Shown: piece by piece, positions 34,251 to 58,195 of the stretch
Layout: each line of letters starts with the position of its first letter
How positions within the stretch are numbered: the stretch's first letter is position 1
Source: Colwellia sp. C2M11
GTDB lineage: Bacteria > Pseudomonadota > Gammaproteobacteria > Enterobacterales > Alteromonadaceae
Length of the DNA: 64,000 nt
Assembly (NCBI RefSeq): GCF_018860915.1
Contig: NZ_JAHKQD010000011.1
Coordinates: forward strand, 1-64,000
Reading direction: 5' to 3'
The notes under the pieces: model-generated
Seen by the model: the letters and a program-made list of their open reading frames with translations, nothing else
Databases searched by the model: none
What the model was told of the DNA's origin: nothing
Program-made: the position numbers and the translations under genes

Positions 34251-34265
34251 CACCCTGAACTCTAA

Positions 34266-39439: not shown

Positions 39440-39509
39440 TTACTTAGATTTACATAACAAGCAGTAATTTTTTATTAGTAATATGATCAGTTTAAACAGG
39501 AGTAGCAAA

Positions 39510-40880: not shown

Positions 40881-40965
40881 GCTGGTAGCTAACTATACTA
40901 ACGTCAGCAATTAACCTTGACGATACGTGTTAACGATTAAAAATTTTAAGTAGGAACAACAAGCA

Positions 40966-42018: not shown

Positions 42019-42037
42019 CTTAGCGATAGGGTAAAAT

Positions 42038-42538
42038 ATGAATATAGAAGAATTAAATACCTTGTCTGTTGAGCAAGCAACGCATGCTTTTATGCAATGT
42101 TGCACAGCTTCTGCTTGGGTTGAAGCTATGGTGAAGGCAAGGCCTTTTAGCGACAGTAGAGCAATTGCGACGCAAGCAGATTTAGTATGGCAAAGGTTAG
42201 AAGAAAAAGATTATTTAGAAGCCTTTGAAGGGCATCCTCAAATCGGCAATGTGGCAACTTTGCGAGCGAAATACGCGAATACAAAAGAATTAGCCAGTGG
42301 TGAACAAAGTTCAGTAAATCAAGCAAGTGAGCAAGTGCTCGTTGATTTAGCCAAGGGTAATGCTGATTACTTAGATAAGTTTGGTTTTATTTTTATTGTT
42401 TGTGCTACAGGTAAAAGTGCTGCAGAAATGCTAGCTTTGTTACTCGAGCGCTTACCCAATAATAGAGCAACTGAATTAGCAAATGCAGCGGAAGAGCAGC
42501 GTAAAATTTTCCACCTTAGAATTGATAAACTACTATGA
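42038..42538 (+). CDS. uraD: OHCU decarboxylase UraD
   Basis: Decarboxylates 2-oxo-4-hydroxy-4-carboxy-5-ureidoimidazoline (OHCU) to S-allantoin, the third step from urate. The 166 residues show the family order: an N-terminal CTASAWVEAMVKARPF, the catalytic EGHPQIGN (near 67-74, His of the HPRIG motif), and FIFIVCATGKSAAEML near 125. 19 nt after alc and 7 nt before uraH. Confidence 0.96.
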   Translation: MNIEELNTLSVEQATHAFMQCCTASAWVEAMVKARPFSDSRAIATQADLVWQRLEEKDYLEAFEGHPQIGNVATLRAKYANTKELASGEQSSVNQASEQVLVDLAKGNADYLDKFGFIFIVCATGKSAAEMLALLLERLPNNRATELANAAEEQRKIFHLRIDKLL

Positions 42539-42545
42539 GTCAAAA

Positions 42546-42890
42546 ATGATGAGCCAAATAACAACGCATGTTTTAGATACTACCCGCGGACTACCAGCAC
42601 AAAAATTACCTATTAGCCTTTTTGCGCAAACACTAGATGGTTGGCAAGAGCTTGCTAAGGGAATAACAAATACCGATGGACGCATAACTGATTTATTAGC
42701 TAATGATGTTGTGCTTCCAGCGGGCGTTTATCGTATGCACTTTGCAACCAAAACTTATTTTGACATGAACAATGAACAAGGTTTTTACCCTTTTGTTGAT
42801 ATCGTTTTTGAGCTTGATGGTAGCAACACGCATTATCATATTCCATTGCTATTAACTGCGTTTGGTTATTCAACATACCGTGGTAGCTAA
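42546..42890 (+). CDS. uraH: 5-hydroxyisourate hydrolase UraH (transthyretin-like)
   Basis: Hydrolyses 5-hydroxyisourate, the PuuD product, to OHCU. The 114 residues have HVLDTTRGLPA at the start and end in the YRGS tetrapeptide diagnostic of the family. The reading frame is open upstream into uraD, but the ATG at 42546 (or 42549) gives the correct N terminus. There is no signal peptide, so it is cytoplasmic. Confidence 0.96.
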   Translation: MMSQITTHVLDTTRGLPAQKLPISLFAQTLDGWQELAKGITNTDGRITDLLANDVVLPAGVYRMHFATKTYFDMNNEQGFYPFVDIVFELDGSNTHYHIPLLLTAFGYSTYRGS

Positions 42891-42895
42891 AACAA

Positions 42896-43402
42896 ATGAC
42901 TGACAATATAAAAATACTGACGCCACAACCATTAACAAAAGATGCTTTTACAGTGTTTGGTGATGTAATTGAAGCTAATTCAGAGGCAAATAACTTTGCT
43001 ATTAATGATGGCTTTACTCAACGTTATCATGATCTAGCAAAAATTGATGTAAATGATAATAACGGGCATCCACTAATCAATATTTTTCGTTCAACTCCTT
43101 TGGTGCAACCAATTGCTATCAAAATGATGGAACGCCACCCAAAAGGGAGTCAGGCATTTATTCCTATGGGAAGCAATGATTATTTAGTGGTTGTTGCACC
43201 AGCAGGAGAGTTTGATGTAAATAGCATTAAAGTTTTTCTTGCTAAATCTTATCAAGGCGTTAATTACCATAAAGGAACTTGGCACCATTTTTGTTTAGCA
43301 TTAGGCGGAGAAAGTGACTTTTTAGTGGTTGATAGAGGCGGCGAAGGCGATAACTGCGATGTACTTGAACTCGATGGTTCATTGGTTATTACCAATACAT
43401 AA
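42896..43402 (+). CDS. allA: Ureidoglycolate lyase AllA
   Basis: Cleaves S-ureidoglycolate to glyoxylate and a second urea, ending the pathway. The 168-residue cupin-like protein has FGDVIEANSE, FRSTP, MMERHPKGSQAFIPM (near 78-92) and NYHKGTWHH (near 123-131), typical of AllA. It starts 5 nt after uraH. Glyoxylate-using genes are not nearby and must be elsewhere. Confidence 0.94.
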   Translation: MTDNIKILTPQPLTKDAFTVFGDVIEANSEANNFAINDGFTQRYHDLAKIDVNDNNGHPLINIFRSTPLVQPIAIKMMERHPKGSQAFIPMGSNDYLVVVAPAGEFDVNSIKVFLAKSYQGVNYHKGTWHHFCLALGGESDFLVVDRGGEGDNCDVLELDGSLVITNT

Positions 43403-43456
43403 ATACATAGTGTGACACACAAACAAGTAAGACATTATAAATCAAGGTGAGAATAA

Positions 43457-44743
43457 ATGTTAAAAGTATTTCGTGGAGAATTACTGCACTTTTTGGCTGA
43501 TCCTGCCAAAGTCCCTCTACAAGAGAGCTATCAATATATAGAAGACGGATTACTAGTTATTGAAAATGGCTTGGTGGCAAAAATAGGTGAATTTGCTGAA
43601 TTGTTTTCGACCTTGCCTGCTGATATTGAGATTACTCATTACCAAAAAGGGTTAATCATACCGGGCTTTATTGATACGCATGTGCATTATCCGCAAACCG
43701 AAATGATTGCGTCTTATGGTGAACAATTACTTGAGTGGCTAGAAAGTTATACTTTTCCATTTGAACGTCAATTTTCAGATCTTGAGCATGGTAAGAAAGT
43801 TGCGGAGTTCTTTTTAGATCAGCTGCTTGATGCAGGAACAACAACAGCTTTAGTATTTGGTACTGTGCATAAAGAGTCGGTTGAAGCCTTTTTTACCATT
43901 GCTCAGCAGAAAAAGCTGCGCATGATTTGTGGTAAGGTATTAATGGATCAAAATTGCCCTGATTATTTATCAGATACCGCACAAAGTGGCTATGATGACA
44001 GTAAGGCATTAATCGAAAAATGGCATAATACTGACCGCTTACAGTATGCCATCACTCCGCGCTTTGCTCCTACTTGCTCAACAGAGCAATTAAATAAAGC
44101 TGGGCAATTATTGGCTGAAAATCCGAGTGTTTATTTACACACTCATTTAAGTGAAAATAAAGCTGAAATTGCGTGGGTAAAAGATCTTTTTCCTGACAGT
44201 GATGGTTATTTAGATGTCTATGATCAAAGTAAATTATTAGGCCGTCGCAGTGTTTTTGCTCATGGTGTTCATTTACATGACAGTGAATGTCAGCGTTTAA
44301 GTGAAACAGATTCAGCAATTGCTTTTTGTCCTAGCTCGAACCTATTTTTAGGCAGTGGTTTATTTAATCTTAAGCAAGCACAAACGCATAATGTGAATGT
44401 TGGACTGGGCTCTGATATTGGTGCAGGAACAACCTTTTCTATGCTAAGTACAATAAATGAAGGGTATAAAACACAGCAACTACGTGGCGATAAACTTGGC
44501 CCATTTCAATCGTTTTATTTAGCAACATTAGGTGGCGCGATTGCCTTAGATCTTGAAGGCACTATCGGTAACTTTACTCAAGGAGCTGAAGCTGACTTTG
44601 TTGTGCTTGATTGTCATGCCACTCCCTTAATGGCTAGACGAATGAGCCATTGTAAAAACTTATCTGAAAAACTCTTTATTTTAAGTATGTTAGGTGATGA
44701 ACGACACGTAAAAGCAACTTATATCATGGGGGAAAAAGTTTAA
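43457..44743 (+). CDS. guaD: Guanine deaminase GuaD
   Basis: Deaminates guanine to xanthine, feeding XdhAB. This amidohydrolase of 428 residues has the zinc ligands in GFIDTHVHYPQTEM (near 71-84), HTHLSEN (near 229-235), FAHGVHL (near 270) and GLGSDIGAG (near 317-325). There is a 54-bp gap to allA with the small palindrome GTGTGACACAC, and a good AAGGTGAG ribosome site. Confidence 0.96.
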   Translation: MLKVFRGELLHFLADPAKVPLQESYQYIEDGLLVIENGLVAKIGEFAELFSTLPADIEITHYQKGLIIPGFIDTHVHYPQTEMIASYGEQLLEWLESYTFPFERQFSDLEHGKKVAEFFLDQLLDAGTTTALVFGTVHKESVEAFFTIAQQKKLRMICGKVLMDQNCPDYLSDTAQSGYDDSKALIEKWHNTDRLQYAITPRFAPTCSTEQLNKAGQLLAENPSVYLHTHLSENKAEIAWVKDLFPDSDGYLDVYDQSKLLGRRSVFAHGVHLHDSECQRLSETDSAIAFCPSSNLFLGSGLFNLKQAQTHNVNVGLGSDIGAGTTFSMLSTINEGYKTQQLRGDKLGPFQSFYLATLGGAIALDLEGTIGNFTQGAEADFVVLDCHATPLMARRMSHCKNLSEKLFILSMLGDERHVKATYIMGEKV

Positions 44744-44848
44744 TTATCGGTTTTAGTTATCATTACTCTTTATTATATTCCTATAAATTAGCGCTATCAT
44801 AAGTTGATTATAAACCAAGTTTAAATGAAGAGATAAAAATACAAAGCA

Positions 44849-44864
44849 AGCGTTATATAACGCT
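44849..44864. promoter_or_regulatory. 16-bp perfect palindrome upstream of puuD
   Basis: AGCGTTATATAACGCT, 61 bp before the puuD start. It is unlike the RutR-like sites, so a second regulator is possible. A further imperfect hairpin (AAACAC ... GTGTTT, about 44878-44904) lies just before the ribosome site and might affect translation. Confidence 0.45.
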
Positions 44865-44925
44865 CTGTTCACAATAAAAACACTTATTTTAATAAGAAGT
44901 GTTTACATAAAAAATGAGGAAGTTT

Positions 44926-46113
44926 ATGGATCCGTATATTAATGAATGGTTAAACCTAATTATCAGGTTTGCTCATCTTATTACTGGTATCGCTTGGATA
45001 GGTGCCTCTTTCTATTTTGTTTGGTTAGACAATCATTTAGAAACACCACCACAAGAAAAAATGGATAAGGGTATTGGCGGTGATTTATGGGCCATTCATG
45101 GCGGTGGTTTCTATGAAGTAGCTAAATATAAGCTTGCCCCACCTAAAATACCAACTACGTTACACTGGTTTAAATGGGAAGCCTATACTACGTGGATTAC
45201 TGGTTTTTTATTATTGTCACTGATGTTTTATGTTGGTGCAGAATCATACTTAATTGACCGACGGGTTGCCGATTTAACACAATTACAAGCGATTGTATTA
45301 GGTCTTGGCTCTATTGTGGTTGGTGTCGGTATTTACGAATTTTTAGTACGTACTAAGTTAAGAAATCATGGCATTGTTTTAGGTTTGATTTTAATTGCCG
45401 TCGCAACGGCTTTATCTTATGGTTTAACGCAGATATTTAGTGCACGTGGTGCCTATATGCATATGGGGGCAATCATAGGCACTATTATGGCAGGTAATGT
45501 ATTTTTCGGTATTATGCCGTCGCAACGAGCTTTAGTTAAAGCGGTTGAAGAAGGACGTGCACCAGATCCTAGCTATGGATTAAATGCCAAAGTTCGCTCA
45601 ACACATAATACTTATACAACACTGCCTATCATTTTTATTATGATATCAAATCATTATCCGATGACTTATAACCATAGTGCTAATTGGCTGGTATTAATCG
45701 CGATTATTTTAATTACTGCCTCAGTGCGACAATATTTCGTATTACGTCATTTTGGTAAGCAAAAGCCCTTAGTGTTGGTTGGCTCTGTGGTCGCAACGAT
45801 TGTTTTAGCTTTTCTAATCGCGCCTAAATCAGTTGAGTTAAACGAAGCACAAAAACAATTAACGGTAAGTGATACACAAGCAATGCAAATTATTGAACAA
45901 CGTTGTAGCGCTTGTCATTCAAATAACAACACTGATGATATGTTTAAAACGGCACAAGCAGGAATTGTGTTTAATGATATTAATTCAATTAAACAATGGG
46001 CACCACGTATAAAAGCTCGGGTTATTGATGCTCAAGATATGCCTTTTATGAATAAAACTAACATGACAAAAGATGAGCGGACTCGTTTAGCTATTTGGTT
46101 AACTCAAAAATAA
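44926..46113 (+). CDS. puuD: Membrane urate hydroxylase PuuD with cytochrome c domain
   Basis: Oxidises urate to 5-hydroxyisourate at the inner membrane, passing electrons to the respiratory chain in place of making peroxide. An N-terminal region with about eight membrane segments carries conserved histidines (HLITGIAWIGASF, WAIHGGGFYEV). A C-terminal periplasmic cytochrome c domain has CSACH at about 327-331, and a probable Met ligand near QDMPFM. I start at ATG 44926 because GAGGA lies just before it; an earlier ATG at 44914 would place that site inside the gene. 395 residues. Confidence 0.95.
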   Translation: MDPYINEWLNLIIRFAHLITGIAWIGASFYFVWLDNHLETPPQEKMDKGIGGDLWAIHGGGFYEVAKYKLAPPKIPTTLHWFKWEAYTTWITGFLLLSLMFYVGAESYLIDRRVADLTQLQAIVLGLGSIVVGVGIYEFLVRTKLRNHGIVLGLILIAVATALSYGLTQIFSARGAYMHMGAIIGTIMAGNVFFGIMPSQRALVKAVEEGRAPDPSYGLNAKVRSTHNTYTTLPIIFIMISNHYPMTYNHSANWLVLIAIILITASVRQYFVLRHFGKQKPLVLVGSVVATIVLAFLIAPKSVELNEAQKQLTVSDTQAMQIIEQRCSACHSNNNTDDMFKTAQAGIVFNDINSIKQWAPRIKARVIDAQDMPFMNKTNMTKDERTRLAIWLTQK

Positions 46114-46386: not shown

Positions 46387-47013
46387 GTGAAAAAAGTGAA
46401 AGAAACAGAAGGGGCTATTCGACAAAAGAATAAAGCTCTTATATTTAAAGCTGCTAAAAAAGAGTTTGTTACTCATGGCTTTAAAGGTGCATCGATCAAG
46501 CGTATTGCAGAGCGGGCTGGGATTGCTCGTGCTAATATTCATTACTACTTTAAAGATAAAACCGATTTGTATCAGCAAATTTTAAGTAATATTATCGAAG
46601 TTTGGAACAGAGATTATGATACGTTAAATGCGAGTAGTGAGCCAAAAGCCGCGCTTAGTGCATACATTAGATCTAAGGTAATGCATTCTAAAAATGATCC
46701 CGATGCCTCTCGAATATTTGCTAGTGAATTAATTCATGGCGCACCTGTTCTGCATGATTACCTAAATAATGATTTTAAAGTATGGTTGCAAAGTAAAGTT
46801 GTCGTTATTGAGGCTTGGATAAAAGAAGGTTTGATTGATGATGTTAATCCACATCATTTGCTATTCTTAATTTGGAGTTCTACGCAACATTATGCTGACT
46901 TTAATGTGCAAGTTGTTGCAGCACTCGATAAGAGGGCTATGGATGACGACGATTTTGAAGCGATTGTTGCTACATTAACGCATGTTATTCTTAAAGGTTG
47001 TGGCATCAGCTAA
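46387..47013 (+). CDS. RutR-like TetR family regulator
   Basis: A 208-residue TetR repressor: helix-turn-helix about 18-62 (SIKRIAERAGIARANIHYYF) and a C-terminal ligand domain of the YcdC/RutR type, with LIWSSTQHYADFNVQVV closely matching the corresponding stretch of E. coli RutR. RutR binds uracil or thymine and controls pyrimidine use; here the gene lies inside a purine island, so the ligand may be a purine or pathway product. The start is GTG at 46387 after AGGGA. Three RutR-like boxes in the island are its likely targets. Confidence 0.87.
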   Translation: MKKVKETEGAIRQKNKALIFKAAKKEFVTHGFKGASIKRIAERAGIARANIHYYFKDKTDLYQQILSNIIEVWNRDYDTLNASSEPKAALSAYIRSKVMHSKNDPDASRIFASELIHGAPVLHDYLNNDFKVWLQSKVVVIEAWIKEGLIDDVNPHHLLFLIWSSTQHYADFNVQVVAALDKRAMDDDDFEAIVATLTHVILKGCGIS

Positions 47014-47282: not shown

Positions 47283-48584
47283 CTATTCAGTATCCGTAAT
47301 AATATCGGCATTTGGTAGTACTACATTCAACAATAAGGCAATAATTGAACCAGTCGTTATCCCTGAAGCTAAAATAACTTTGAGAAATTCAGGTAAGTGA
47401 CTTAATAATTCAGGACGAACAGTGACTGCCATACCGGTAGCAATGCTGACAGCGATAATCATGCCATTTCGTTTCGTATGTTGAGTGGTAGATAAAATAT
47501 TCACCCCTGCAGTAATAATCATGGCAAACATAACTAAGCCTGCACCACCTAATACAGGTAGAGGTATAGAGACAATCATAGCCCCTAAAACTGGGAATAA
47601 ACCTGCCAGAACTAACATTGCACCTGTAATAGCAACCACATATCTACTGGCAACGCCTGTCATCCCAACAATACCAACATTTTGTGAAAAGGAAGAAAAA
47701 GGCGTCGTTGAAAATACCGATGCTAGCGCTGAACCTAATCCATCACATAAAATACCACTTGATAGTTTTTTTCCGGTTAATTTAGTTTTTGTTACGTTAG
47801 ACAGTGCAAGAAAATCTCCGGTAGATTCCACTATTGTTACTAGGTAAGCGATAGACATTCCAATAATACCGCTAATTGGAAAGCTTAAACCAAAATGGAA
47901 AGGACTGGGTAAGGCAAATAATGGCGAACTTTCTACTGGCTTAAAGTCGATTACCCCTAAGGCTAAACAAACAAGGTAACCGACAAGCATGCCAATAACG
48001 ACAGCAGCGGCAGATAAAATACCTTTACCAAAGATAGATAATGTAACCACGGTTGCTAAAACTAGCAAACCTATGGCTAAATTAGACAGCGAAGCATAGT
48101 CATCTTGGCCTACTTGACCACCAGCAAACCAATCAATTGCTACGGGTACTAATGATAGACCTATTAAAGTCACCACTGTGCCAGTAACAATAGGCGGGAA
48201 AAATTTTCTAATTATTGGCATAAAAAAACTGCCAATGATCATTACAAGTGACGCAACCAAAGCCGAGCCTAAAATGCCTTCCACACCATATTCAAAACCA
48301 ATCGCGATAGAGACACCAACAAAGGTAAAACTCGTGCCCATAACACAAGGTAATCGAATACCAACAGGACCAAGCCCTTTACATTGAATAATAGTTACCA
48401 CGCCCGAAATTAGCATTGCTGCGTTAACTAGGACAACAATATCCGCTACAGGAAGCTTTAACACTCCGCCAATGACTAGTGGGACTGTAATAATTGCACT
48501 TAGTGCAGCAAGTAAATGCTGTGCTGCGAGTAATATGGATGTCCCTAGTGGCGGTTTATCTTCAACGTTATATAAAATGTCCAT
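47283..48584 (-). CDS. NCS2 family urate/xanthine permease
   Basis: A 433-residue inner-membrane nucleobase:cation symporter. LLAAQHLLAALSA near residue 18-30 and the NAT signature QNVGIVGMTGVASR (near 300) place it in the urate/xanthine (UacT/XanQ/PucK-like) branch of NCS2, with 12-14 membrane segments. It follows the exported nucleosidase gene by 52 bp and is probably cotranscribed with it, so it may import bases released in the periplasm. The exact substrate (urate, xanthine or both) is not decided by sequence alone. Confidence 0.9.
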   Translation of the reverse strand: MDILYNVEDKPPLGTSILLAAQHLLAALSAIITVPLVIGGVLKLPVADIVVLVNAAMLISGVVTIIQCKGLGPVGIRLPCVMGTSFTFVGVSIAIGFEYGVEGILGSALVASLVMIIGSFFMPIIRKFFPPIVTGTVVTLIGLSLVPVAIDWFAGGQVGQDDYASLSNLAIGLLVLATVVTLSIFGKGILSAAAVVIGMLVGYLVCLALGVIDFKPVESSPLFALPSPFHFGLSFPISGIIGMSIAYLVTIVESTGDFLALSNVTKTKLTGKKLSSGILCDGLGSALASVFSTTPFSSFSQNVGIVGMTGVASRYVVAITGAMLVLAGLFPVLGAMIVSIPLPVLGGAGLVMFAMIITAGVNILSTTQHTKRNGMIIAVSIATGMAVTVRPELLSHLPEFLKVILASGITTGSIIALLLNVVLPNADIITDTE

Positions 48585-48636
48585 AATGCCTACTTGAATT
48601 GTTATAAAATGAATGTTTTTTTATAGGATTTCCGTT

Positions 48637-49512
48637 TTATAGTGTTGCTATATAATGCTTTACTGTATTTAGAACGAATTGCTGACAATCTTGCGCGGTT
48701 GAAGGATCATACTTTCCGCCATTAGTTAGATTATTTGATAACACACGAATACTTAGCATTGGAATGTTATATTCACTGGCAATCATTGCAGCGGCAGCGC
48801 CTTCCATTTCTTCCGCGCTGGTACCGAAATTTTTATGGAACCAGAGAATTCTATCAATTTCATTATTCCAAAAGTTAGCTGAGCCGATTGTACCTTCGAC
48901 AACCTTGCCTCTTTTATATAAGCCTTTGACGGCGATAGCTGAATTTAATAGTGTTGGGCTACCCGCATAAAAACGTATTTTCTCAGCATCTTGGGCACCA
49001 GAGTCCTCTCCAGCACTACCTTTTGATGCCATAATATCCATGGGTATCCACGAAAATGGATCTGAGCCTTGGCCGTTTTTTTTATATGATGTTTTAAAGT
49101 TACCAATATTTACGGTTCTTTTACCTAACACTATATCTCCAACCATTAGCGCAGGATCATGTCCGCCTGATGTTCCTTGGTTAATGATGGCTAAAGGTCG
49201 GTATCTCTCTATGGCAATAGCTGTTGCTGCGGCAGTATTTTCTAGCCCTTTGCCTGTTTCTGCGACGATAACAGGGTAGTTATCTAATGTGCCAATATAA
49301 AAAGTAAAATAACCTGAGTATTCTATTCGAACATTTGACAGTCTTTTAGCTAGATACTCGGCTTCAATTGGCATTGGTGCTTCAATTAAAATTGGTTGTG
49401 GTGCTAACACTGCACTTTCTGTAATCGTACTTTTCATTGTTGTTGCGTTAGCATTCAGTTGAATGAATAGCGCTGTAAACAGTAATATGAATTGGGTAAG
49501 TAGTTTATTCAT
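48637..49512 (-). CDS. Exported purine nucleosidase/phosphorylase-fold protein (PNP_UDP)
   Basis: The MTA/SAH nucleosidase fold with an N-terminal signal peptide (about 1-24, LLFTALFIQLNANATT), so it should be periplasmic. Family marks are VAETGKGLENTAAATAIAIE, INQGTSGGHDPALMVGDIVLG, and the substrate-binding EEMEGAAAAMIASEYNIPML near 236-255. Cytoplasmic Pfs enzymes have no signal and are about 230 residues; this one has 291. It most likely frees purine bases from nucleosides for the adjacent NCS2 permease. Substrate is inferred from context. Confidence 0.85.
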   Translation of the reverse strand: MNKLLTQFILLFTALFIQLNANATTMKSTITESAVLAPQPILIEAPMPIEAEYLAKRLSNVRIEYSGYFTFYIGTLDNYPVIVAETGKGLENTAAATAIAIERYRPLAIINQGTSGGHDPALMVGDIVLGKRTVNIGNFKTSYKKNGQGSDPFSWIPMDIMASKGSAGEDSGAQDAEKIRFYAGSPTLLNSAIAVKGLYKRGKVVEGTIGSANFWNNEIDRILWFHKNFGTSAEEMEGAAAAMIASEYNIPMLSIRVLSNNLTNGGKYDPSTAQDCQQFVLNTVKHYIATL

Positions 49513-49676
49513 AGGGCAGTCCTTAATGGGGCGGTAGCATAATGCTTAAAAATAAATAAAGATGAACTATTTAAACTTTTAATTTATATCAAAGCACATT
49601 GCGCGACATGGTTTACGCTAATTTATGTCCAACTGATATTGTTGTACCGTTGAATAGTTGCATTGACGAATAATAT

Positions 49677-49714
49677 AAAGACAGCAATAGTTAGACTTAT
49701 TCATTGCTGTCTTT
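49677..49714. terminator. Terminator after the NUP-family lipoprotein gene
   Basis: AAAGACAGCAAT / ATTGCTGTCTTT, a perfect 12-bp stem with a 14-nt loop. Read on the minus strand it is followed by ATATTATT. It lies between the NUP-family gene (stop 49781) and the exported nucleosidase (start 49512), separating two transcripts. Confidence 0.75.
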
Positions 49715-49780
49715 ATTGTTGCATCAGGCGATAGAGTTTATTAATTACAGAATTTACTCATTAGCCTGAGCTTAGTTAGT

Positions 49781-50902
49781 CTATTTCGTTTGGTAAGGAG
49801 GAGTCTCTTTATATATAGACCAATTAGCGACTATATTGTCAACGACTATACTGCCGACAGAATAAGCAGACTCTAAAGACGATAACATGCCAGCAAAACC
49901 CTCTTCACCACTTTCCATTGCTAAGTTTTCAGCAGCAGTTAAACTGTCTGGCGGCATACTGTAATTACTTGCCGTGCGAAGTACCATAAAGCGGTTTTTA
50001 TCTGCCTTTCCGGCGCTATCTAAATAAGTTAATGCTTGGTAACTACCCGTATCTTCCATACCTGAAGTAACAAAGTTTGCTTGATCGTCACTCCAAAATT
50101 TTGTCCATGAATTAGCCCATTCATTAAGTAATTTACCATGCCAGAATGTAGAAGCAGCCATGTGATCACCTTTTAATACAAAGGGCGGTAATTGAGCTTT
50201 AGGGTAGTTAACATACTTAGCTCTTAATTTTTGCATTGCCGGGTAATCAGTCAGTGGAGTGTTTTTAGTTAGTTGATAGGCCCATTCAGCAAGCTCACCA
50301 TTTATTTTATAGACTTCACCAGCAGGCTGATGTTTAGTGTCTGACACTGTTTCATCTTTATATGGCCCATGTGAAAAAAGAGGAAAGTATCCGGTAGCCC
50401 AGTCTTTAGGTGCTTCGCGAGCGTCTATTTGATGTGCTAAATCACCATCAACTAACCATGTTGCCCATACTGCAGAGCCAATGGAAGCATCATGAGGATC
50501 AACACCTGCAATACCTGCGACTAACCAATAGGCTTGAGTAAGGTCAAAGCGAGGGTCTAAGCCCAAAGCCATAATAGCAGCAGTTGCACGCGCTGTGCCC
50601 ATGCCCGTTACCATACCTAAAACACCTGTTTCTTCATTTAAGTATAAATCGTGGAAACCTTGTGGAAATTCATACTTGGTATTTAAGGCTTGTCCTTCTT
50701 TCCATAGCTGAAATTCACCGGCTTTATCGCCCGAATCTTCACCAATTTCAAACATGTTAACAACAACAACTTTTACTTGAATTGGCTTAGTTTCTTCTAT
50801 GGTTTGCGTGGCAGAATTTTGTGTAGCTGTTTTTACTGCACTGCAGCTAGATAGGGTGAACATTAAACCGAGTAAGGTTATTGGAACTAATAAATACTTC
50901 AT
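49781..50902 (-). CDS. Purine nucleoside permease (NUP) family lipoprotein
   Basis: A 373-residue protein of the NUP family (PF06516), first named from Candida albicans. In this bacterium it has a lipobox LSSC (Cys20), so it is a lipoprotein facing the periplasm or cell surface and not a membrane channel. Core marks are VVVNMFEIGEDSGDKAGEFQ, GFHDLY, TGMGTARATAA and AYWLVAGIAGVDP. The fold is related to nucleoside phosphorylases, so binding or cleaving nucleosides is more likely than transport. It lies just downstream of the TonB receptor gene but past a strong terminator. Confidence 0.87.
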   Translation of the reverse strand: MKYLLVPITLLGLMFTLSSCSAVKTATQNSATQTIEETKPIQVKVVVVNMFEIGEDSGDKAGEFQLWKEGQALNTKYEFPQGFHDLYLNEETGVLGMVTGMGTARATAAIMALGLDPRFDLTQAYWLVAGIAGVDPHDASIGSAVWATWLVDGDLAHQIDAREAPKDWATGYFPLFSHGPYKDETVSDTKHQPAGEVYKINGELAEWAYQLTKNTPLTDYPAMQKLRAKYVNYPKAQLPPFVLKGDHMAASTFWHGKLLNEWANSWTKFWSDDQANFVTSGMEDTGSYQALTYLDSAGKADKNRFMVLRTASNYSMPPDSLTAAENLAMESGEEGFAGMLSSLESAYSVGSIVVDNIVANWSIYKETPPYQTK

Positions 50903-50962
50903 TGGGTCTCTCTATGATAAAGATAAAATAACAGGAATATGTTTACTTTATATAAACTTAAA

Positions 50963-50997
50963 AAAGACTCATATTCATATACTGAGTATGAGTCTTT
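50963..50997 (-). terminator. Strong terminator after the TonB receptor gene
   Basis: AAAGACTCATA / TATGAGTCTTT, an 11-bp stem with a 13-nt loop. On the minus strand it ends in TCTTTTT, a proper U-tract, 27 nt after the receptor stop. Confidence 0.88.
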
Positions 50998-51023
50998 ACG
51001 ACATTTTTGTGAGCTAGCTAATT

Positions 51024-53438
51024 TTAGAACTTGTAGCTGAATTTTGCTTGAACATGTCGTGGAAGTTCAGGTAATACTACTTGTCCACCAAATAGATCTG
51101 GGAAGTTAGAACGGTAGTATTTTTCATCGGTTAAGTTTTTAACGGTAAAACTTGCAGTCCAAGTTTCGGCATCATAAAACACACCAGCATTCATTAATGT
51201 ATATGAAGGTAGTTCTACTGCTTGTGAGAAACCTGAGTAAGTTGAGCTGGCATTAACCACACTAGCATTTGCGGCAAAGCCATTTTGGAAATCATAAGTT
51301 GCGGTCACGCTGTATATATCTTCAGGCATACCCGCTTTACGTCCGCCTTCTTCATCACCAACTAATGTTAAACCAATAACATTACCACCATAGATAAGAG
51401 CCGGATCACTTAAGTTAACTAAATCTTCAGCACCTAAGAAGCCAAACTGACCGCCATCTTGTATGGCTGTTAAGTTATAAACTTTAAGATTTGTATAACC
51501 TGCACTTAACACAAGTTGTTCGTTAAATACCCAGCGTAATTCAAATTCTGTTCCTTCATTACGCGTAGTGGCGTTAGTGGTTATTGACTGAGCATTAAAA
51601 TCAGTACGTTCTTGCTCATAAAATGATAATGCAAAGTATAAGCTGTCATCTAAAAAGCTACCTTTTACACCATATTCAGTTAATTTTGAAACATCAAAAG
51701 CACCACTTTCTAACTGAGCAACACCAATTTCTGCCCCTTGACCTGCAACCAATGTTCCTTGTTCAGCTAAAGTAATATAAGGAACTAAGCCAAAGTCTGA
51801 CTTATATGAAATACTGGTATTCCAAGATACACCATCTTCTGTTTTACTCGCGTCAGTAGTATTAGATGTATCGTATGAATCAGCAGAGCCTAATAATTTA
51901 TAATCCAGTCTGGTTGTTTCAATATCTATAGTGTCGTAACGAAGACCTAATAAGACATTTAAGCCCCAATCCCAACTTAAATTTGACATCGCGGCGATAC
52001 CGTAATCGGTATAACTTCCTACGTCATAATTATCATAATCTTTATCAATTCTTGTCGCGAGTAAACGACGATCTAATGCAGTTGAAGGCATGGTTAGATC
52101 ACGACGGTTAAAATATTCATTGGTAAAATCATCAGCATGTTTGAAATTGGTGTATCGAACTGAAGGTGATATTTGTACTTGTGCGATCAATGAATCGAAT
52201 TCATATTCATTTGAAAATACAAGCTTATTTTCAACAACATAACTATCATGTTTTTGAGCAAAACCGTATGCGTTTTCATTGATATTGTCATAGGCATCAT
52301 AAAATAATTGGTTTTTAATTTCCCAACCATTATCAGTGTAATAAAACATATCTAAATATAGCGTAACAGCGGTATTTTTAAGTTGATCGTCGGCAGCGGT
52401 GAGTACTTGGTTATGTGATAATGTACTTGTACCGGCGTTCTCTAGCATCATCGCTTCAGTTACTTCAGCGTCATTAAATGAGGTTGCAGGTACATAAAAT
52501 AAGCTGTTACCCGCTAAGTTAACTGCGCCATATTCTTGATGTGAAATAGAGCCATCACCATTGGTATCTAAAGGTTTCGATGTACCCGTAGTATAAGAGC
52601 CGTTATCAATAAGGTCTTGTGTTAAACGGTTCCAACCTGCAACTTGATTACCATCGTATTTATGGTACATGCCACCTACTTCAAAACGGAAATTATCGGT
52701 AATGTCGCCATTAAAAGAGGCTTGAAATATAGTTTGATCCGTACCAGAGTTATCATAGAAACTACCTGAGTTTTCAATTTCACCATACAGATAGAAGCCC
52801 ATTTCTTTCCCTGCTATTTTGGCAGGGCCACCAACTTCAGCTGTTATGACACTTTTATCCCAGCTACCTGTTGTGATAGAAAATTCACCTTTATTCTCAT
52901 CTAAGTATTGTCCGCCAGTGGCACGAGAAGACTTAGGGGTAAAGTTTAAATAACCACCAATTTTTGATGGGCCATGAATTGGAGAAGCAGGGCCTCTAAC
53001 AATATCAACACTACTTGATGCACCAATAGGGGTCGGGAAGTTACCCGGGTTATCAAGACGTTTAACTCCTCTGAAGTAGTTTTCACCAGGTGTACCACGA
53101 ACATCTAAAGAGCCAGCGACGCCAAAAAACGATTGTGTAAATGTACCAGGTGAAAATGCAACTAACTCATCAAGATCAGTGATAGCAAAACGTTCCATTT
53201 GCTGATTACTAATTGTTGATACCGAGCGTGGCGTTTCTAGTATTGATTCACCAAAACCAAAAACAGATTCAACTGCTTGGCCAGGTAAGCTTCCTAGGGA
53301 ACCTCTTACTTCTATTTTTTCAATATTCTCATCAACTTTTTTAGTTTCTTCATCTGCTGCGAATACATTCGAAGTTAAGCTAAGACCTAATGCAATTGCA
53401 GAAGCAAGGTAAGTGGTTTTGTAGTTACGTAGTGTCAT
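51024..53438 (-). CDS. TonB-dependent outer-membrane receptor, probably for purine nucleosides
   Basis: An 804-residue TonB-dependent receptor. A signal peptide ends near residue 27 (SNVFAADEE). A short EKIEVRGS stretch that may act as TonB box leads into the plug domain (about 50-175: ETPRSVSTISNQQMERF, VDIVRGPASPIHGPSKIGGY). The rest is a 22-strand-type barrel ending in FSYKF with the terminal Phe. Plug features resemble siderophore-type receptors, but the locus is purely purine-related, so nucleoside or nucleobase uptake is inferred. A RutR-like site lies 106 bp upstream. Confidence 0.9.
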   Translation of the reverse strand: MTLRNYKTTYLASAIALGLSLTSNVFAADEETKKVDENIEKIEVRGSLGSLPGQAVESVFGFGESILETPRSVSTISNQQMERFAITDLDELVAFSPGTFTQSFFGVAGSLDVRGTPGENYFRGVKRLDNPGNFPTPIGASSSVDIVRGPASPIHGPSKIGGYLNFTPKSSRATGGQYLDENKGEFSITTGSWDKSVITAEVGGPAKIAGKEMGFYLYGEIENSGSFYDNSGTDQTIFQASFNGDITDNFRFEVGGMYHKYDGNQVAGWNRLTQDLIDNGSYTTGTSKPLDTNGDGSISHQEYGAVNLAGNSLFYVPATSFNDAEVTEAMMLENAGTSTLSHNQVLTAADDQLKNTAVTLYLDMFYYTDNGWEIKNQLFYDAYDNINENAYGFAQKHDSYVVENKLVFSNEYEFDSLIAQVQISPSVRYTNFKHADDFTNEYFNRRDLTMPSTALDRRLLATRIDKDYDNYDVGSYTDYGIAAMSNLSWDWGLNVLLGLRYDTIDIETTRLDYKLLGSADSYDTSNTTDASKTEDGVSWNTSISYKSDFGLVPYITLAEQGTLVAGQGAEIGVAQLESGAFDVSKLTEYGVKGSFLDDSLYFALSFYEQERTDFNAQSITTNATTRNEGTEFELRWVFNEQLVLSAGYTNLKVYNLTAIQDGGQFGFLGAEDLVNLSDPALIYGGNVIGLTLVGDEEGGRKAGMPEDIYSVTATYDFQNGFAANASVVNASSTYSGFSQAVELPSYTLMNAGVFYDAETWTASFTVKNLTDEKYYRSNFPDLFGGQVVLPELPRHVQAKFSYKF

Positions 53439-53544
53439 GTCAGAGTGTTTCCCTTAAAATTTGTTCAGAACGCTAATTCAATTATTAGCAGTATTTATTT
53501 TTTATTATTATATGAACTAATAAAGCAGAATTAATGCCAAGTAG

Positions 53545-53560
53545 TTGACTTAAGTGTCAG
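53545..53560. promoter_or_regulatory. RutR-like operator upstream of the TonB receptor
   Basis: TTGACTTAAGTGTCAG, followed by TTTTTTATC, very like the xdhA site with its flank (GTGTCAGTTTTTTA in both). It lies upstream of the receptor gene on the minus strand; a TATAAT at 53512-53507 (minus) could be the -10 element. Confidence 0.6.
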
Positions 53561-53668
53561 TTTTTTATCCCGCTTTAATCTATTGTTTTTATTGTGTTTT
53601 ATTTTCTTTGTGAAATTTTTTATGGGTAATGAACAATTGAGGGAAATTTATACAGCACTAGATTGGAG

Positions 53669-53698
53669 CAATTGCACCAACTTATGCTGGTGCAATTG
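53669..53698. terminator. Hairpin after the unknown exported protein gene
   Basis: CAATTGCACCA / TGGTGCAATTG, an 11-bp perfect stem with an 8-nt loop, 34 nt past the stop of the 53732 gene. A T-run is present only on the plus-strand side, so it is a less typical terminator for the minus-strand operon. Confidence 0.55.
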
Positions 53699-53731
53699 TT
53701 TTGATAACCGTTAATTTATAAAAGGGGATTA

Positions 53732-54703
53732 CTATTTATAGTCGCCATTAAGGTAGCGATAAAAAGCAGGATTGACCCAAACATCCTCGCTTGAAAGCGA
53801 AACGTTCATTTTTGCTTGAGATAAGGTGTTATTAATTTTCTTAAGTACACTATCTACATTAGGGGGTAATACAAGTGTTGAAGCGATAAACCCATCGGCT
53901 TGCAGCGATATCCTTTTTACTGCAATAAAAGAGGCTTGTGGATGAAAAGTACGATAAAACGGTTGCCACCAAGCATCAATAATTAAGCCCGTTTGACCTT
54001 CACTATTTTTTTTGGCAAATTGATTGATTAGCGGCATGAAAGTATTTTGTTCAGCTTGATTAGCGAAGTTGAATCTTAAATCATACTCTTGCGCTGTTCT
54101 AATGTTTGATTTTTTTTCCTCTGTTTTAGTATCTTGCCAATTTTCACGAATGTTGAAGGCTGAACTTTTTGCGATTAATTGCCAGGTGAAGTCAACATTG
54201 TTAACGGTTAATAAACTAATGAGTTGCTTTGCATGCACCAAAGAACTATGACCGTAAAGGATTACATTGTCACCTGAGTCACTCGATGTCGCCATTGTTT
54301 GAGCTTTAATGTTATAACCTTCAACTATATTTTCAGCTAATAGCTGATTCAATAATGATGTCAGTGACGTAGGTACTGTTGGGTAATCAATTGTTAACGG
54401 CTTAAGAGCAGCACAATTTTCTAATGCAGTGCTTTGTTGTAATTGATTAACCTCTTTTTGGGGGAGACAACCTAGTTTAGATAATAATATAGCTGACTTT
54501 TCTTCTTCGCTATTATATTCAGTGCTGCCTGTTATTTTTTGTGATGCTTTATTTTCTTTAAGAGTAATGGTCTCAGATACTTCTGTTAATTTTGCTGCAG
54601 CCACTACCTGTGAATATGGTTGTTTGGCTTGTACAGTCGTAAATGAAAGTAAGGTAAAACATAAGCTAACAATTAGTTTGTTGTAGTGCAGTCTCTTGTA
54701 CAT
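53732..54703 (-). CDS. Exported protein of unknown family
   Basis: I do not recognise this 323-residue protein. It has a clear signal peptide (about 1-26, ending VQA-KQ), then a polar mature region with two cysteines (about residues 78 and 92) that could form a disulfide. The middle (about 115-200) has alternating helix-like segments, and a later block contains DAWWQPFYRTFHPQASF. There is no lipobox and no membrane helix after the signal. It starts 10 nt after the adenosine deaminase stop, so it is cotranscribed with it and likely works in the periplasm on the same process. Confidence 0.8.
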   Translation of the reverse strand: MYKRLHYNKLIVSLCFTLLSFTTVQAKQPYSQVVAAAKLTEVSETITLKENKASQKITGSTEYNSEEEKSAILLSKLGCLPQKEVNQLQQSTALENCAALKPLTIDYPTVPTSLTSLLNQLLAENIVEGYNIKAQTMATSSDSGDNVILYGHSSLVHAKQLISLLTVNNVDFTWQLIAKSSAFNIRENWQDTKTEEKKSNIRTAQEYDLRFNFANQAEQNTFMPLINQFAKKNSEGQTGLIIDAWWQPFYRTFHPQASFIAVKRISLQADGFIASTLVLPPNVDSVLKKINNTLSQAKMNVSLSSEDVWVNPAFYRYLNGDYK

Positions 54704-54713
54704 ATAAAAGATC

Positions 54714-56186
54714 CTAATTGATAGATTTGTTTAGTTGTGGGTATTGACGACGAATAAATTCATTTAAGACTGCTGGTTTAGTTAAACTATCAACACCATC
54801 CTTTTTAAAGCTTTGCTCAAACGATTTTATATTTTGGTTAAACTTATCACTAACTTGTTGCTTGTCTGCAATATTCAAAAAACTATATTCAAGCGAATTT
54901 TTACTCAATTTTAGAACTTCCTGCCAAGATAAATTAAACGATTTAACCGCAACAAAAAACTCATCAGTTAAGTTTGAATGAAACATACCTCTATCATCTG
55001 TTGATAAAGCAACCGGTATTCCAGTGCGCAAGTATTCAGGGAAGGGATGATTTTTAAAATCGTCAATATATTCTAATAATAAATTACTAATCAAATTAAT
55101 TTCAATTAAGTAATGGTTATGACGCATTAACAGTAGCGTTTGGGGATCACCTAATAAATTAACACCATGGCCAATTCTATCTGCGCCCAATAGTAAGGTA
55201 TCTCTAATATGGAAATTGGGTTCATCAACTTCGCCTGCATGAATGGTTAATGCAATGGCTGGATATTGTTGTCTTAATTCACGTAAAGTCGATAAAAACC
55301 TTAGTGGATGGCCTTTTCCATTATCTTCTCTGCCGACCATGTTAATACCAACATAAATGTCTCTATGTTTATCAACAAACTTATAAATATCGGTTAGTTG
55401 TTGTTCTGCAATAGGTGAAAATCGTAAAAGTTGATAGATCAATTTGACTGTGACACCTGTTTCCTTCGCATCTTTTTGAGCTAATCGTTGTTTAAGAATT
55501 GTTAGGGCTTTTTCTTGTGTTTGTGGCTTACCGTCAGGCGTCATAAAGGCAGATACATTGAATTGACTTTCAAGATAAATAACACCTTCATCAGAAAATG
55601 ATTTCATATTACGAACAAACAATTCAGCAGCGATATATGGGTTACTGGTTAGCTCATTTAAGCGTTGCCAGTGAGCTTGAAAAAACTCATCACGTCCTTC
55701 AAAATCTTTATCTAACCATAAGCTTTGCTGCCATGCTTCTTTCTCGGAAGCTGTTAATGATGACAAAGCTTTATAATTTTTTTGCTCACATTTACTTAGC
55801 TGATGATACGTATGGGCACTTATATTAACGAACGTTAGCATAGGAGAGCTGAAACCAAATGCATTTTGACCATAACCTTGGCATAAATTTAATGCGACTT
55901 TGGTGTAATAACTGTAGCCACCATTAAGTTCACTATTGGTGGCGATTTCGTACCACCAACGAGGAAAGTTACTACCACTAGAGTGTTGATGTAAATCAGC
56001 CCCTTTAGGCATATTATATAGAAATTGATATAGTTGCTTATCTGTTGCTTTGCTTTTGAAGTCATCAAACCATTTATCATTATTTTGGTTTACTTCAGCC
56101 CATGATTTAGCTGAGCTTTCTTGACAAAGTATTAATTGTGCAGTGAATAATATTACGCTAGCTAATATTTTTAATGATGGATGCAT
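54714..56186 (-). CDS. Exported adenosine deaminase (ADGF/CECR1-like)
   Basis: Deaminates adenosine to inosine. The 490-residue length and signal peptide (about 1-26) match secreted ADGF-type deaminases rather than the roughly 330-residue cytoplasmic Add. Metal and catalytic motifs are present: KGADLHQHSSGS (HxH), LTIHAGEVDE, DRIGHGVNL and STDDRGMF. LILCQ near the signal end is not a proper lipobox, so it is probably soluble in the periplasm or secreted. It heads a two-gene unit with the unknown exported protein, and a RutR-like site is 186 bp upstream. Confidence 0.9.
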   Translation of the reverse strand: MHPSLKILASVILFTAQLILCQESSAKSWAEVNQNNDKWFDDFKSKATDKQLYQFLYNMPKGADLHQHSSGSNFPRWWYEIATNSELNGGYSYYTKVALNLCQGYGQNAFGFSSPMLTFVNISAHTYHQLSKCEQKNYKALSSLTASEKEAWQQSLWLDKDFEGRDEFFQAHWQRLNELTSNPYIAAELFVRNMKSFSDEGVIYLESQFNVSAFMTPDGKPQTQEKALTILKQRLAQKDAKETGVTVKLIYQLLRFSPIAEQQLTDIYKFVDKHRDIYVGINMVGREDNGKGHPLRFLSTLRELRQQYPAIALTIHAGEVDEPNFHIRDTLLLGADRIGHGVNLLGDPQTLLLMRHNHYLIEINLISNLLLEYIDDFKNHPFPEYLRTGIPVALSTDDRGMFHSNLTDEFFVAVKSFNLSWQEVLKLSKNSLEYSFLNIADKQQVSDKFNQNIKSFEQSFKKDGVDSLTKPAVLNEFIRRQYPQLNKSIN

Positions 56187-56755
56187 ATTTTTCCTTTAAT
56201 TATTTTTTAAGGCACTATACCTTGGTTACTTACTTATATTGGGCACGGTATAGTATTTAATTTGCGAGCACCGGATAGTATTCGATAAGTTATCACGTGT
56301 ATAAATGTTTATAGGTGATTTAATTTCATGCTACAAGTTAATATTATTCATTCGTTTGCGCGACAAAAATGTTGACATGTTTGTCAGATTTTGTGACTTT
56401 GTTGTGATTACTTAGTGGGATAAGCAATGGTTATGTCTTAAATTGTGTCGATTACTACTCTCACAAGTAGATACTTCACCCGTCATGTTACATGAGTCAT
56501 GAGCATTTATTAATAAGTAGTCATTGCTTAATCAGATTTTATTTCTTAGTGCCATCTGAATTGGTTTGCTATGTAGCACTTTAACGAGTATTTATAAATT
56601 ATTGATTTTTATTTCGGTTACTAAGAAGATAGTTATACTCAGATTCATTTATATAATGATCCTAAACTAAAATTACTCTTTTATAATTATCCTTGCAATA
56701 AAAAATCACTTTAAAAATAAAATATTCTTTACAAATAAATAAGAGAATTGTAGTT
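56187..56755. promoter_or_regulatory. 569-bp divergent control region of adenosine deaminase and AzgA-type genes
   Basis: No gene seen. Besides the RutR-like site (56372-56387) it has ACTATACC at 56214 and its reverse complement GGTATAGT at 56247, with two direct repeats GCACGGTATAGTATTT (56243) and GCACCGGATAGTATTC (56268) spaced 25 bp, about two helical turns and a half. TCATG-TTA-CATGA at 56483-56495 is a further palindrome. These look like sites for at least one more regulator. Confidence 0.5.
56372..56387. promoter_or_regulatory. RutR-like operator between adenosine deaminase and AzgA-type genes
   Basis: TTGACATGTTTGTCAG, the third copy of the TTGAC-N6-GTCAG pattern, followed by ATTTTGT. 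It is nearer the deaminase (186 bp) than the permease (369 bp), so the deaminase operon is the more likely target. Confidence 0.6.
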
Positions 56756-58195
56756 ATGGAAAAAGTTAGTAACACTAATGAAAAACAAGTAAAAAGTGTC
56801 GGTTTTTTAGAGCGATGGTTTAAATTATCTTCCCATAAAACTACAGTCAAAATAGAAGTTATGGCAGGTTTTACCACCTTCGTAACTATGTCTTATATTA
56901 TGTTTTTAAACCCCATAATTATGTCTAAGTCTGGCATGCCCTTTGATGGGTTATTTTTAGCAACATGTCTTGGGGCTGCTATAGCGACAATCTTAATGGG
57001 GATGTACGCAAACTGGCCGGTAGGCCTTGCACCAGGTATGGGGTTGAATGCATTTTTTACCTTTACTGTCGTTGGTAGTATGGGATACAGCTGGGAAATT
57101 GCATTAGGAGCAGTGTTCCTTTCAGGTGTGCTCTTTGTGTTAATGAGTGTTACTCGGCTTAGAGAATGGATGCTAGAGAGTATCCCGATGAGCTTACGGT
57201 TGGCGATGACTGCTGGTGTTGGGCTCTTTCTTGGTTTTATTGGTTTACGTTTTACCGGCCTAGTTGTTGCTGATCCTGATAATATTGTAGCGATTGCAGA
57301 CTTAACTCATTTTGGCTTTGGTGCTTTTGGGCCAGAAGCACCAGCATTAGGATTTTTAAGTTTTTTACTTATTTCTATTCTTAGTTATCGTAACGTTTTT
57401 GGTGCTGTATTAATTGGTATTGCCGTGACTACATTGGTTGCATTTATAATGACTTGGGTTTTACCAACAGACTTTTTTGTTGTTGCTGAAGCGGCTAAAT
57501 CATTTGCTCCTACTTCAGGTTTTATGAGCTATAACGGCTTGTTAGCTATTCCTGATTTTGCAGCGCTTGAACCTATTTTGTGGAAAGCTGATATTGCTGG
57601 CGCTTTTCAAGTTGCGTTAATCCCTGTGATCGTTACCTTCTTATTTGTTAATATTTTTGATACAGCTGGAACTCTTATGGGGGTTGCTGAACGCGCCAAT
57701 TTACAGGATGAAAACGGTAAAATCCAAGGATTGAATAAATCTTTAAAGGCTGATTCTATCTCATCAGTTATTGGTACTGCCTTTGGTTGTTCGCCAGTTA
57801 CTTCTTATGTTGAATCGGCTGCGGGGGTTTCTGTTGGTGGTCGTACAGGGCTTACTGCAGTAACCATTGGTTTGCTATTTTTTGTCGGCATGTTTTTCTT
57901 ACCACTTGCACAAATGCTACCGGGATTTGCTGTCGATGGTGCACTTATCTATGTCGCTATGTTGATGATGAGCTCTTTAAGAGGTCTAGATTGGGATGAC
58001 TTAACAGAGTATGCCCCTGCCGTGTGTACAACAGTGATGATGGCATTTACCTTCTCTATTTCAAACGGTATCGCCTTTGGTTTTATTACTTATACAGTGC
58101 TTAAGTTGGGGGCAGGTAAGTCTAATGAAATATCGGGTGGGGTATGGGCGCTAACAGCATTGTTTGTAGCGAAGTTTATGTTTTTACAACACTAA
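56756..58195 (+). CDS. AzgA/GhxP-type purine permease
   Basis: A 479-residue inner-membrane permease of the AzgA-like branch of NCS2, which imports adenine, guanine or hypoxanthine with protons. GFTTFVTMSYIMFLNP near 40-55, GLAPGMGLNAFF near 97-108 and the FVNIFDTAGTLMG stretch near 298-310 are characteristic. It complements the urate/xanthine-type permease at 47283. Divergent from the exported adenosine deaminase, it fits uptake of bases formed outside the cytoplasm. I saw no purine riboswitch in its leader. Confidence 0.92.
   Translation: MEKVSNTNEKQVKSVGFLERWFKLSSHKTTVKIEVMAGFTTFVTMSYIMFLNPIIMSKSGMPFDGLFLATCLGAAIATILMGMYANWPVGLAPGMGLNAFFTFTVVGSMGYSWEIALGAVFLSGVLFVLMSVTRLREWMLESIPMSLRLAMTAGVGLFLGFIGLRFTGLVVADPDNIVAIADLTHFGFGAFGPEAPALGFLSFLLISILSYRNVFGAVLIGIAVTTLVAFIMTWVLPTDFFVVAEAAKSFAPTSGFMSYNGLLAIPDFAALEPILWKADIAGAFQVALIPVIVTFLFVNIFDTAGTLMGVAERANLQDENGKIQGLNKSLKADSISSVIGTAFGCSPVTSYVESAAGVSVGGRTGLTAVTIGLLFFVGMFFLPLAQMLPGFAVDGALIYVAMLMMSSLRGLDWDDLTEYAPAVCTTVMMAFTFSISNGIAFGFITYTVLKLGAGKSNEISGGVWALTALFVAKFMFLQH

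What the first reader, a model, noticed from the sequence alone, without database searches (positions are those of the whole stretch)
47283..58195. Candidate cell-envelope purine nucleoside utilisation locus
A TonB receptor, an exported adenosine deaminase, a NUP-family lipoprotein, an exported nucleosidase, an unknown exported protein and two inner-membrane purine permeases are grouped together. The layout parallels polysaccharide utilisation loci: outer-membrane import, periplasmic processing, inner-membrane uptake, then catabolism by the adjacent pathway. Most described bacterial nucleoside use relies on outer-membrane porins such as Tsx and cytoplasmic enzymes, so TonB-dependent nucleoside uptake with periplasmic deamination would be new or little described.
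Basis: inference. Interest (0 to 1): 0.85.

Follow-up and report, generated by a model that had tools for sequence, protein, structure and literature searches.

The report
TonB-linked purine nucleoside scavenging locus
A marine bacterium carries a gene set that appears to pull purine nucleosides through its outer membrane with an energised receptor, take them apart outside the inner membrane and feed the bases to a neighbouring breakdown pathway; related sea bacteria carry similar sets, often with the same DNA switch, but the transport itself has not been tested.

Summary
The genes are as described: an exported ADGF/ADA2-type adenosine deaminase, an exported unknown protein, a TonB-dependent receptor, a NUP lipoprotein, an exported MTAN-type nucleosidase and two NCS2 purine permeases, beside a purine catabolic pathway. 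The grouping is not chance: of 79 receptor loci (the best of 300 found), 66 hold a NUP gene and 73 at least one purine gene.

Best reading: TonB-dependent purine nucleoside import with periplasmic deamination and base release, feeding purine catabolism. Purine use is well supported; the receptor's substrate is inferred. The genome also has a NupC cytosolic route. New variant of TonB-linked nutrient loci.

The parts
34655..46113 (+). Purine catabolic genes xdhA, xdhB, xdhC, allantoinase, allantoicase, OHCU decarboxylase, HIU hydrolase, ureidoglycolate lyase, guanine deaminase, puuD
   Evidence: Six by Pfam, four by reading
34569..34584 (.). RutR-like operator TTGACACTTGTGTCAG, about 70 bp before xdhA
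46387..47013 (+). TetR-family regulator with RutR-type C-terminal domain (TetR_C_3), 38% identical to E. coli RutR
47283..48584 (-). NCS2 xanthine permease (PbuX subfamily)
   Evidence: TIGR03173 475 bits over cut-off
48637..49512 (-). Exported MTAN-type nucleosidase; nearest solved relative is 5b7g, of the periplasmic Aeromonas enzyme series
   Evidence: no relative in the 79 loci
49781..50902 (-). NUP-family lipoprotein; predicted nucleosidase fold
51024..53438 (-). TonB-dependent receptor of a purine-linked clade
   Evidence: Plug domain; orthologues; tree
53545..53560 (.). RutR-like operator TTGACTTAAGTGTCAG, about 107 bp before the receptor
53732..54703 (-). Exported protein of unknown family; relatives found in 6 of 79 loci, each after the deaminase and before the receptor
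   Evidence: no usable fold match
54714..56186 (-). Exported adenosine deaminase of the ADGF/ADA2 type with intact metal and catalytic residues
56372..56387 (.). RutR-like operator TTGACATGTTTGTCAG between the divergent deaminase and permease genes
56756..58195 (+). Second NCS2 permease (AzgA-like by recall; no NCBIfam match)

Best explanation
This is a purine nucleoside scavenging system built on an energised outer-membrane receptor. Inferred steps: the receptor, driven by TonB, brings scarce purine nucleosides (possibly nucleotides or related purines) into the periplasm; the exported deaminase turns adenosine into inosine; the NUP lipoprotein and the exported nucleosidase split inosine/guanosine (or related nucleosides) into base and sugar; two NCS2 permeases bring hypoxanthine, guanine and xanthine into the cytoplasm; guanine deaminase, xanthine dehydrogenase and the urate/allantoin genes then release nitrogen and carbon. 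A RutR-like TetR protein encoded beside the cluster is the probable regulator through YTGAC-N6-GTCAR operators. Shown by computation here: gene content, export-type N-termini, conserved neighbours, TonB complexes beside the receptor in relatives, shared operators, predicted NUP fold. Not shown: receptor substrate, enzyme specificities, regulator binding and ligand.
For: Conserved neighbourhood: of 79 receptor loci, NUP in 66, an NCS2 permease in 62, exported-type deaminase (over 120 bits) in 41, any purine gene in 73; NUP is an immediate neighbour in 62 of 79. Further recurrent neighbours: PuuE allantoinase (25 loci), an allantoate amidohydrolase/aminotransferase/amidase group (22), a phosphoribosyltransferase (9) and an allantoicase-like protein (5) (one representative of each was scanned). 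Presence/absence: 7 of 8 receptor-bearing genomes have NUP against 1 of 189 without. DUF3450-ExbB-ExbB-TonB-TPR follows the receptor in L038, L040, L042, L043 and L120. Co-regulation: 3 operators in the window against 0.24 expected, 3 of the genome's 5 sites; in relatives 42 of 52 sites lie before receptor/purine genes, against 1-8 sites in all per shuffle and 0-1 intergenic sites for changed spacers; the inner bases, left free, are palindromic too, giving YTGACCANNTGGTCAR. Export: hydrophobic N-terminus (10-residue mean over 1.8) in 34 of 36 deaminases, 68 of 70 NUP, 6 of 6 unknown proteins, against 4 of 40 weaker deaminase hits, 2 of 25 PuuE and 0 of 22 AllC. Deaminase residues H66, H68, H316, E319, H340, D397, D398 in 7 of 7. 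NUP model matches MTAN. No Tsx and no NupG family match in the genome. One distant locus (L149) has NUP and an exported-type deaminase amid purine genes.
Against: No transport, binding or expression data. The nearest named solved receptor is a siderophore receptor (plug region, E 3e-4). 6 of 79 loci show no purine gene in the DNA held: L064, L077, L100, L102, L108, L128 (L108 is cut off by its contig end). G031 has the receptor without NUP. The operator was first seen in the window, so its count there is circular; 41 of 79 loci have no such site before these genes, including all of L105-L129 except L112, an Alteromonas (L120 has one inside the frame called xdhA, 162 bp before the deaminase). 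One of eight control patterns, with another half-site, gave 13 hits, 6 intergenic. The regulator is below both RutR cut-offs, and E. coli's rut region holds no exact match, one with 3 mismatches. Both exported splitting enzymes resemble an MTA/SAH nucleosidase, so the substrate could be such a compound. In the window itself no TonB complex adjoins the receptor; a more distant one lies about 12 kb beyond 58195 (L050). A NupC/Add/DeoD-type cluster gives a parallel cytosolic route.
Confidence: 0.68

Rival explanations
1. The receptor imports purine-containing compounds other than simple nucleosides: nucleotides, free bases or urate, or SAM by-products such as methylthioadenosine; the exported enzymes then trim them.
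For: The nearest solved relative of the exported nucleosidase and the top VIA match of the NUP model belong to the periplasmic MTA/SAH nucleosidase of Aeromonas; the nearest solved deaminases include Helix AMP deaminase and AGSA; a 35%-identical receptor in L039 and L041 sits beside an NCS2 permease and an amidohydrolase without NUP or this deaminase in those stretches.
Against: No 5'-nucleotidase family among 18 of the 19 recurrent neighbour families scanned by one representative each (one HAD hydrolase sits with an amylase-type enzyme in 10 loci, two have no match), and the deaminase recurs in 41 of 79 loci.
Confidence: 0.22
2. The receptor is a siderophore or other metal-ligand receptor that merely lies among purine genes.
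For: TIGR01783 siderophore-receptor model matches at 118 bits; the only named solved hit is a ferric alcaligin receptor.
Against: TIGR01783 is far below its cut-off of 223.5; no Fur-box match with up to 3 mismatches in the window; NUP is an immediate neighbour in 62 of 79 loci; shared operator with xdhA.
Confidence: 0.05
3. Periplasmic deaminase and nucleosidases act mainly on signalling or toxic nucleosides outside the cell, and nutrition is secondary.
For: The deaminase is of the ADGF/ADA2 type, whose animal members act outside cells (recalled); export-type N-termini of the processing enzymes.
Against: Recurrent link to purine catabolism and permeases and a common operator.
Confidence: 0.05

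Closest known systems
Polysaccharide/carbohydrate utilisation loci with TonB-dependent receptors (SusCD PUL, Xanthomonas CUT loci; recalled)
   Same: Receptor, exported degrading enzymes, inner-membrane permease and local regulator grouped for one nutrient class
   Different: No SusD and no carbohydrate enzyme among the Pfam matches of the ten proteins scanned; the enzymes are of purine nucleoside families
Tsx/NupC/NupG nucleoside uptake with cytosolic Add and DeoD (E. coli; recalled)
   Same: Same nutrient; the genome holds a NupC cluster with Add, DeoD, DeoB, Udk and DeoC-like genes elsewhere (NupC by Pfam, Add by Pfam, others by reading)
   Different: No Tsx or NupG match; deamination and base release are placed outside the inner membrane
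Periplasmic MTA/SAH nucleosidase of Aeromonas hydrophila (PDB 5b7g, 5b7p, 5b7q; title seen for 5b7p and 5b7q)
   Same: Nearest solved sequence of the exported nucleosidase (E 2e-60) and top VIA match of NUP
   Different: NUP shares 12% identity in that match and is a lipoprotein of another Pfam family; no substrate was tested here
RutR regulon (E. coli)
   Same: TetR relative 38% identical; operator like the recalled TTGACCAnnTGGTCAA
   Different: Below RutR cut-offs; sites lie before purine genes
ADA2/ADGF extracellular adenosine deaminases
   Same: TIGR01431 spans residues 44-456 with 133 bits; ADA2 (3lgd, CECR1) is the third-best solved hit
   Different: Below the TIGR01431 cut-off of 315; bacterial

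Membership tests
TonB-dependent receptor | Plug domain | tested here: met
   PF07715 42.7 bits over cut-off 23.9
TonB-dependent receptor | Dependence on TonB/ExbBD | tested here: inconclusive
   TonB complex adjoins the orthologue in L038, L040, L042, L043 and L120, not in the window; dependence needs mutants
Siderophore receptor (TIGR01783) | Score over curated cut-off | tested here: not met
   117.9 against 223.5 bits
Siderophore receptor (TIGR01783) | Fur box upstream | tested here: not met
   0 matches with up to 3 mismatches in the window, (consensus recalled; weaker boxes not excluded)
Adenosine deaminase ADGF/ADA2 | A_deaminase domain with metal and catalytic residues | tested here: met
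   PF00962 124 bits; residues invariant in 7 of 7; roles recalled
Adenosine deaminase ADGF/ADA2 | Score over TIGR01431 cut-off | tested here: not met
   133 against 315 bits
NUP (PF06516) | Pfam score over cut-off | tested here: met
   372.6 against 27 bits
NUP as a membrane permease | Several membrane-spanning helices | tested here: not met
   Predicted model is a nucleosidase-type alpha/beta fold after an N-terminal signal helix
MTA/SAH nucleosidase (canonical) | Catalytic Asp at E. coli position 197 (1z5o title names Asp197; role recalled) | tested here: not met
   Asn in the exported nucleosidase, shared with 5b7g
RutR | Score over RutR equivalog cut-offs | tested here: not met
   184.9 against 368 and 165.1 against 230 bits
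SusCD polysaccharide utilisation locus | SusD-like partner | tested here: not met
   No SusD Pfam match in the ten proteins scanned
Nucleoside importer | Binds and transports nucleosides | not testable with these tools
   needs experiment

The most novel reading that the evidence does not exclude
A distinct family of TonB-dependent receptors, spread over marine Alteromonadales and related Gammaproteobacteria, actively imports purine nucleosides and works with NUP lipoproteins that are nucleosidases rather than permeases; together with an ADA2-type deaminase they form an outer-membrane-to-periplasm purine machine, in the Alteromonadales under a RutR-like regulator that has shifted from pyrimidines to purines.
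Probability: 0.5. Interest if true: 0.8.

Novelty: new variant of a known kind. Interest (0 to 1): 0.62.

Why it matters
Nucleosides are among the compounds for which marine bacteria may compete (PMC8027193, passages read), and purine cross-feeding has been reported among ocean microbes (PMC11698098, abstract start and passages). How Gram-negative marine bacteria get dilute nucleosides through the outer membrane did not complete in the papers that I could search. A receptor family with a clear genomic signature would offer an answer, would suggest a substrate for some 300 receptor genes, and would correct the reading of NUP proteins as permeases.

Tried and rejected

Literature (open-access library only): the listings of searches showed no title that describes TonB-dependent nucleoside import (76 shows 20 of 243 papers, 32 shows 20 of 23; titles and abstract starts only). 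Passages were read in PMC9870897, PMC8027193, PMC11698098 and PMC6281302; the marine TonB-receptor survey PMC3400609 has no occurrence of nucleoside, nucleotide or purine in its main text. Subscription papers and preprints were not searched. One search for the RutR operator found nothing, so that consensus is recalled; search 31 for the Aeromonas nucleosidase showed no paper on that enzyme among 10 of 28 listed.
Full report
Observation. The seven genes of the finding are present at the given positions beside a set of purine catabolic genes. The N-termini of the deaminase, the unknown protein and the nucleosidase read as signal peptides, and NUP carries a lipobox (LSSC) (by eye). Across the 79 relatives a hydrophobic N-terminus (10-residue mean over 1.8 in the first 60) is found in 34 of 36 deaminases over 300 bits, 68 of 70 NUP and 6 of 6 unknown proteins, against 4 of 40 weaker deaminase hits (mostly cytosolic-type), 2 of 25 PuuE and 0 of 22 AllC.

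Conservation in the order. NUP is rare: 8 of 197 genomes of the order and 14 of 299 of the phylum at E 0.001. Seven genomes have both (3e-11 without correction for kinship); G031 has the receptor only and G003 NUP only. In the neighbourhoods deaminase, receptor and NUP lie within 15 kb of each other in L034, L035, L038, L040, L042 and L043; L037 (G031) has one permease beside the receptor and two purine-type genes further off; L036 (second copy in G121) has none of these but a chemoreceptor.

Conservation in named genomes. The species collection gave 300 relatives, of which the best 80 (79 loci) were kept: Alteromonas, Paraglaciecola, Glaciecola, Aliiglaciecola, Pseudocolwellia, Psychrosphaera, Pseudoalteromonas, Thalassotalea, Thalassolituus, Cellvibrionaceae and uncultured Gammaproteobacteria. 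Within the DNA held, NUP is in 66 of 79, an NCS2 permease in 62, the exported-type deaminase (over 120 bits) in 41, any purine gene in 73; none in L064, L077, L100, L102, L108 and L128. Of 57 loci with at least 8 kb on both sides, 47 have NUP and 30 the deaminase; NUP, deaminase and a permease occur together in 37 of 79. The label GuaD also covers weak amidohydrolase hits, and one permease hit (L127) lies in an over-long frame, so single labels are approximate. The unknown protein has relatives in 6 of 79, the MTAN-type nucleosidase in none. Of 19 further recurrent neighbour families (5 or more loci), one representative each of 18 was scanned: PuuE allantoinase (25 loci); a group with allantoate amidohydrolase, class V aminotransferase, gamma-glutamyltransferase-like protein, amidase and TauE protein (22 loci); a phosphoribosyltransferase (9); an allantoicase-like protein (5); signalling proteins; and genes that look unrelated. 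The likeness of the group of 22 to the Klebsiella hpx urate genes is recalled.

Energy supply. In L038, L040, L042 and L043 the receptor is followed by DUF3450, two ExbB-type proteins, TonB and a TPR protein and then NUP (Pfam names from L042), with an ExbD-like reading frame in L042 (by eye). L120 (Thalassolituus) has the same set. In the window's own genome a more distant set of this kind starts about 12 kb beyond the second permease, past the window's end (L050; TonB 103 bits against 298-417 in L038, L040 and L043); whether it serves this receptor is unknown.

Regulation. Reading the promoters showed a common palindrome at 34569, 53545 and 56372. TTGACN6GTCAR occurs 3 times in the window against 0.24 expected, none of 100 shuffles reaching 3; YTGACWN4WGTCAR occurs at 5 places in the 4.17-Mb genome, 3 of them here, against 3 for the reversed control. 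Because the pattern came from these sites, the test that counts is in relatives: in 79 loci [TC]TGACN6GTCA[AG] has 52 hits, 42 outside genes and within 400 bp upstream of a receptor or purine gene (38 loci), 6 inside genes and 4 elsewhere; ten simulated shuffles give 1 to 8 (mean 3.2). Spacers of 4, 5, 7 or 8 give 2 to 7 hits with 0 or 1 outside genes; four patterns with other half-sites give 2 to 13 hits with 0 to 6 outside genes. Many sites are from close kin: 28 of the 46 intergenic sites differ in sequence. The inner bases, left free by the pattern, give YTGACCANNTGGTCAR, which is the RutR operator as I recall it. The TetR gene at 46387 is 38% identical to E. coli RutR but below both RutR cut-offs. 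The site lies most often before the permease/cytosolic deaminase pair (23 sites), less often before the receptor (8) or the exported deaminase (6). 41 of 79 loci lack it, including all of L105-L129 except L112, so this control looks like a trait of the Alteromonadales side.

Receptor identity. Sequence search in the PDB gives an unnamed TonB receptor and the ferric alcaligin receptor, over the plug region. TIGR01783 is below its cut-off. The tree places the window's receptor with Pseudoalteromonas sp. MMG010 (81% identity) and Pseudocolwellia, while the relative sampled from its own genus is only 54% identical, which suggests transfer between genera.

Other routes. The genome has no Tsx and no NupG match but has NupC in a cluster with Add, DeoD, DeoB, Udk and DeoC-like genes. 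So periplasmic processing is one of two routes, perhaps the one for low concentrations.

Verdict. Purine use is supported by gene content, conserved neighbours and shared operators. That the receptor carries nucleosides is the simplest reading but is not shown. Known pieces are joined in a way that the listed open-access searches did not turn up.

Noticed in passing
L036:7654-9798 (G121): Beside a second receptor copy lies a dCache chemoreceptor gene with a RutR-like operator 219 bp upstream: possible purine chemotaxis under the same control.
   Followed up: partly
L054:12491-14140 and ten further loci (L055-L058, L060, L062, L069, L079, L091, L092): NUP is 549-595 residues long; Pfam shows a C-terminal Cupin_5 (DUF985) domain in L054, seen by eye in L056, L057 and L092; the others by length only.
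   Followed up: partly
L039:6460-10478 and L041:9299-13323: A 35%-identical receptor beside an NCS2 permease and an amidohydrolase, in genomes that also carry the main locus: perhaps a second purine receptor type.
   Followed up: partly
L095:10000-18300: Three receptor genes in tandem between the permease and NUP.
   Followed up: no
L063:13721-17535 and similar Alteromonas loci: A hybrid histidine kinase and a GGDEF response regulator (14 loci each) and an Hpt protein (7 loci) recur near the receptor locus.
   Followed up: no
L044, L045, L046, L047, L049: A distant receptor (26-32%) is followed in five genomes by a 717-721 residue protein; in L045 this joins a VTT domain to a pyridine nucleotide-disulphide oxidoreductase, and a solute-binding protein lies two genes on.
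   Followed up: no
L003:10149-11246 (G000 C23): A second NUP gene of the same genome stands among efflux-type and regulatory genes, away from purine genes.
   Followed up: no
window 34066-34400: Repeated stretches (GTCGTCATTCTGA..TTGATTCAGGATC) between genes before xdhA look like a small repetitive element (by eye).
   Followed up: no
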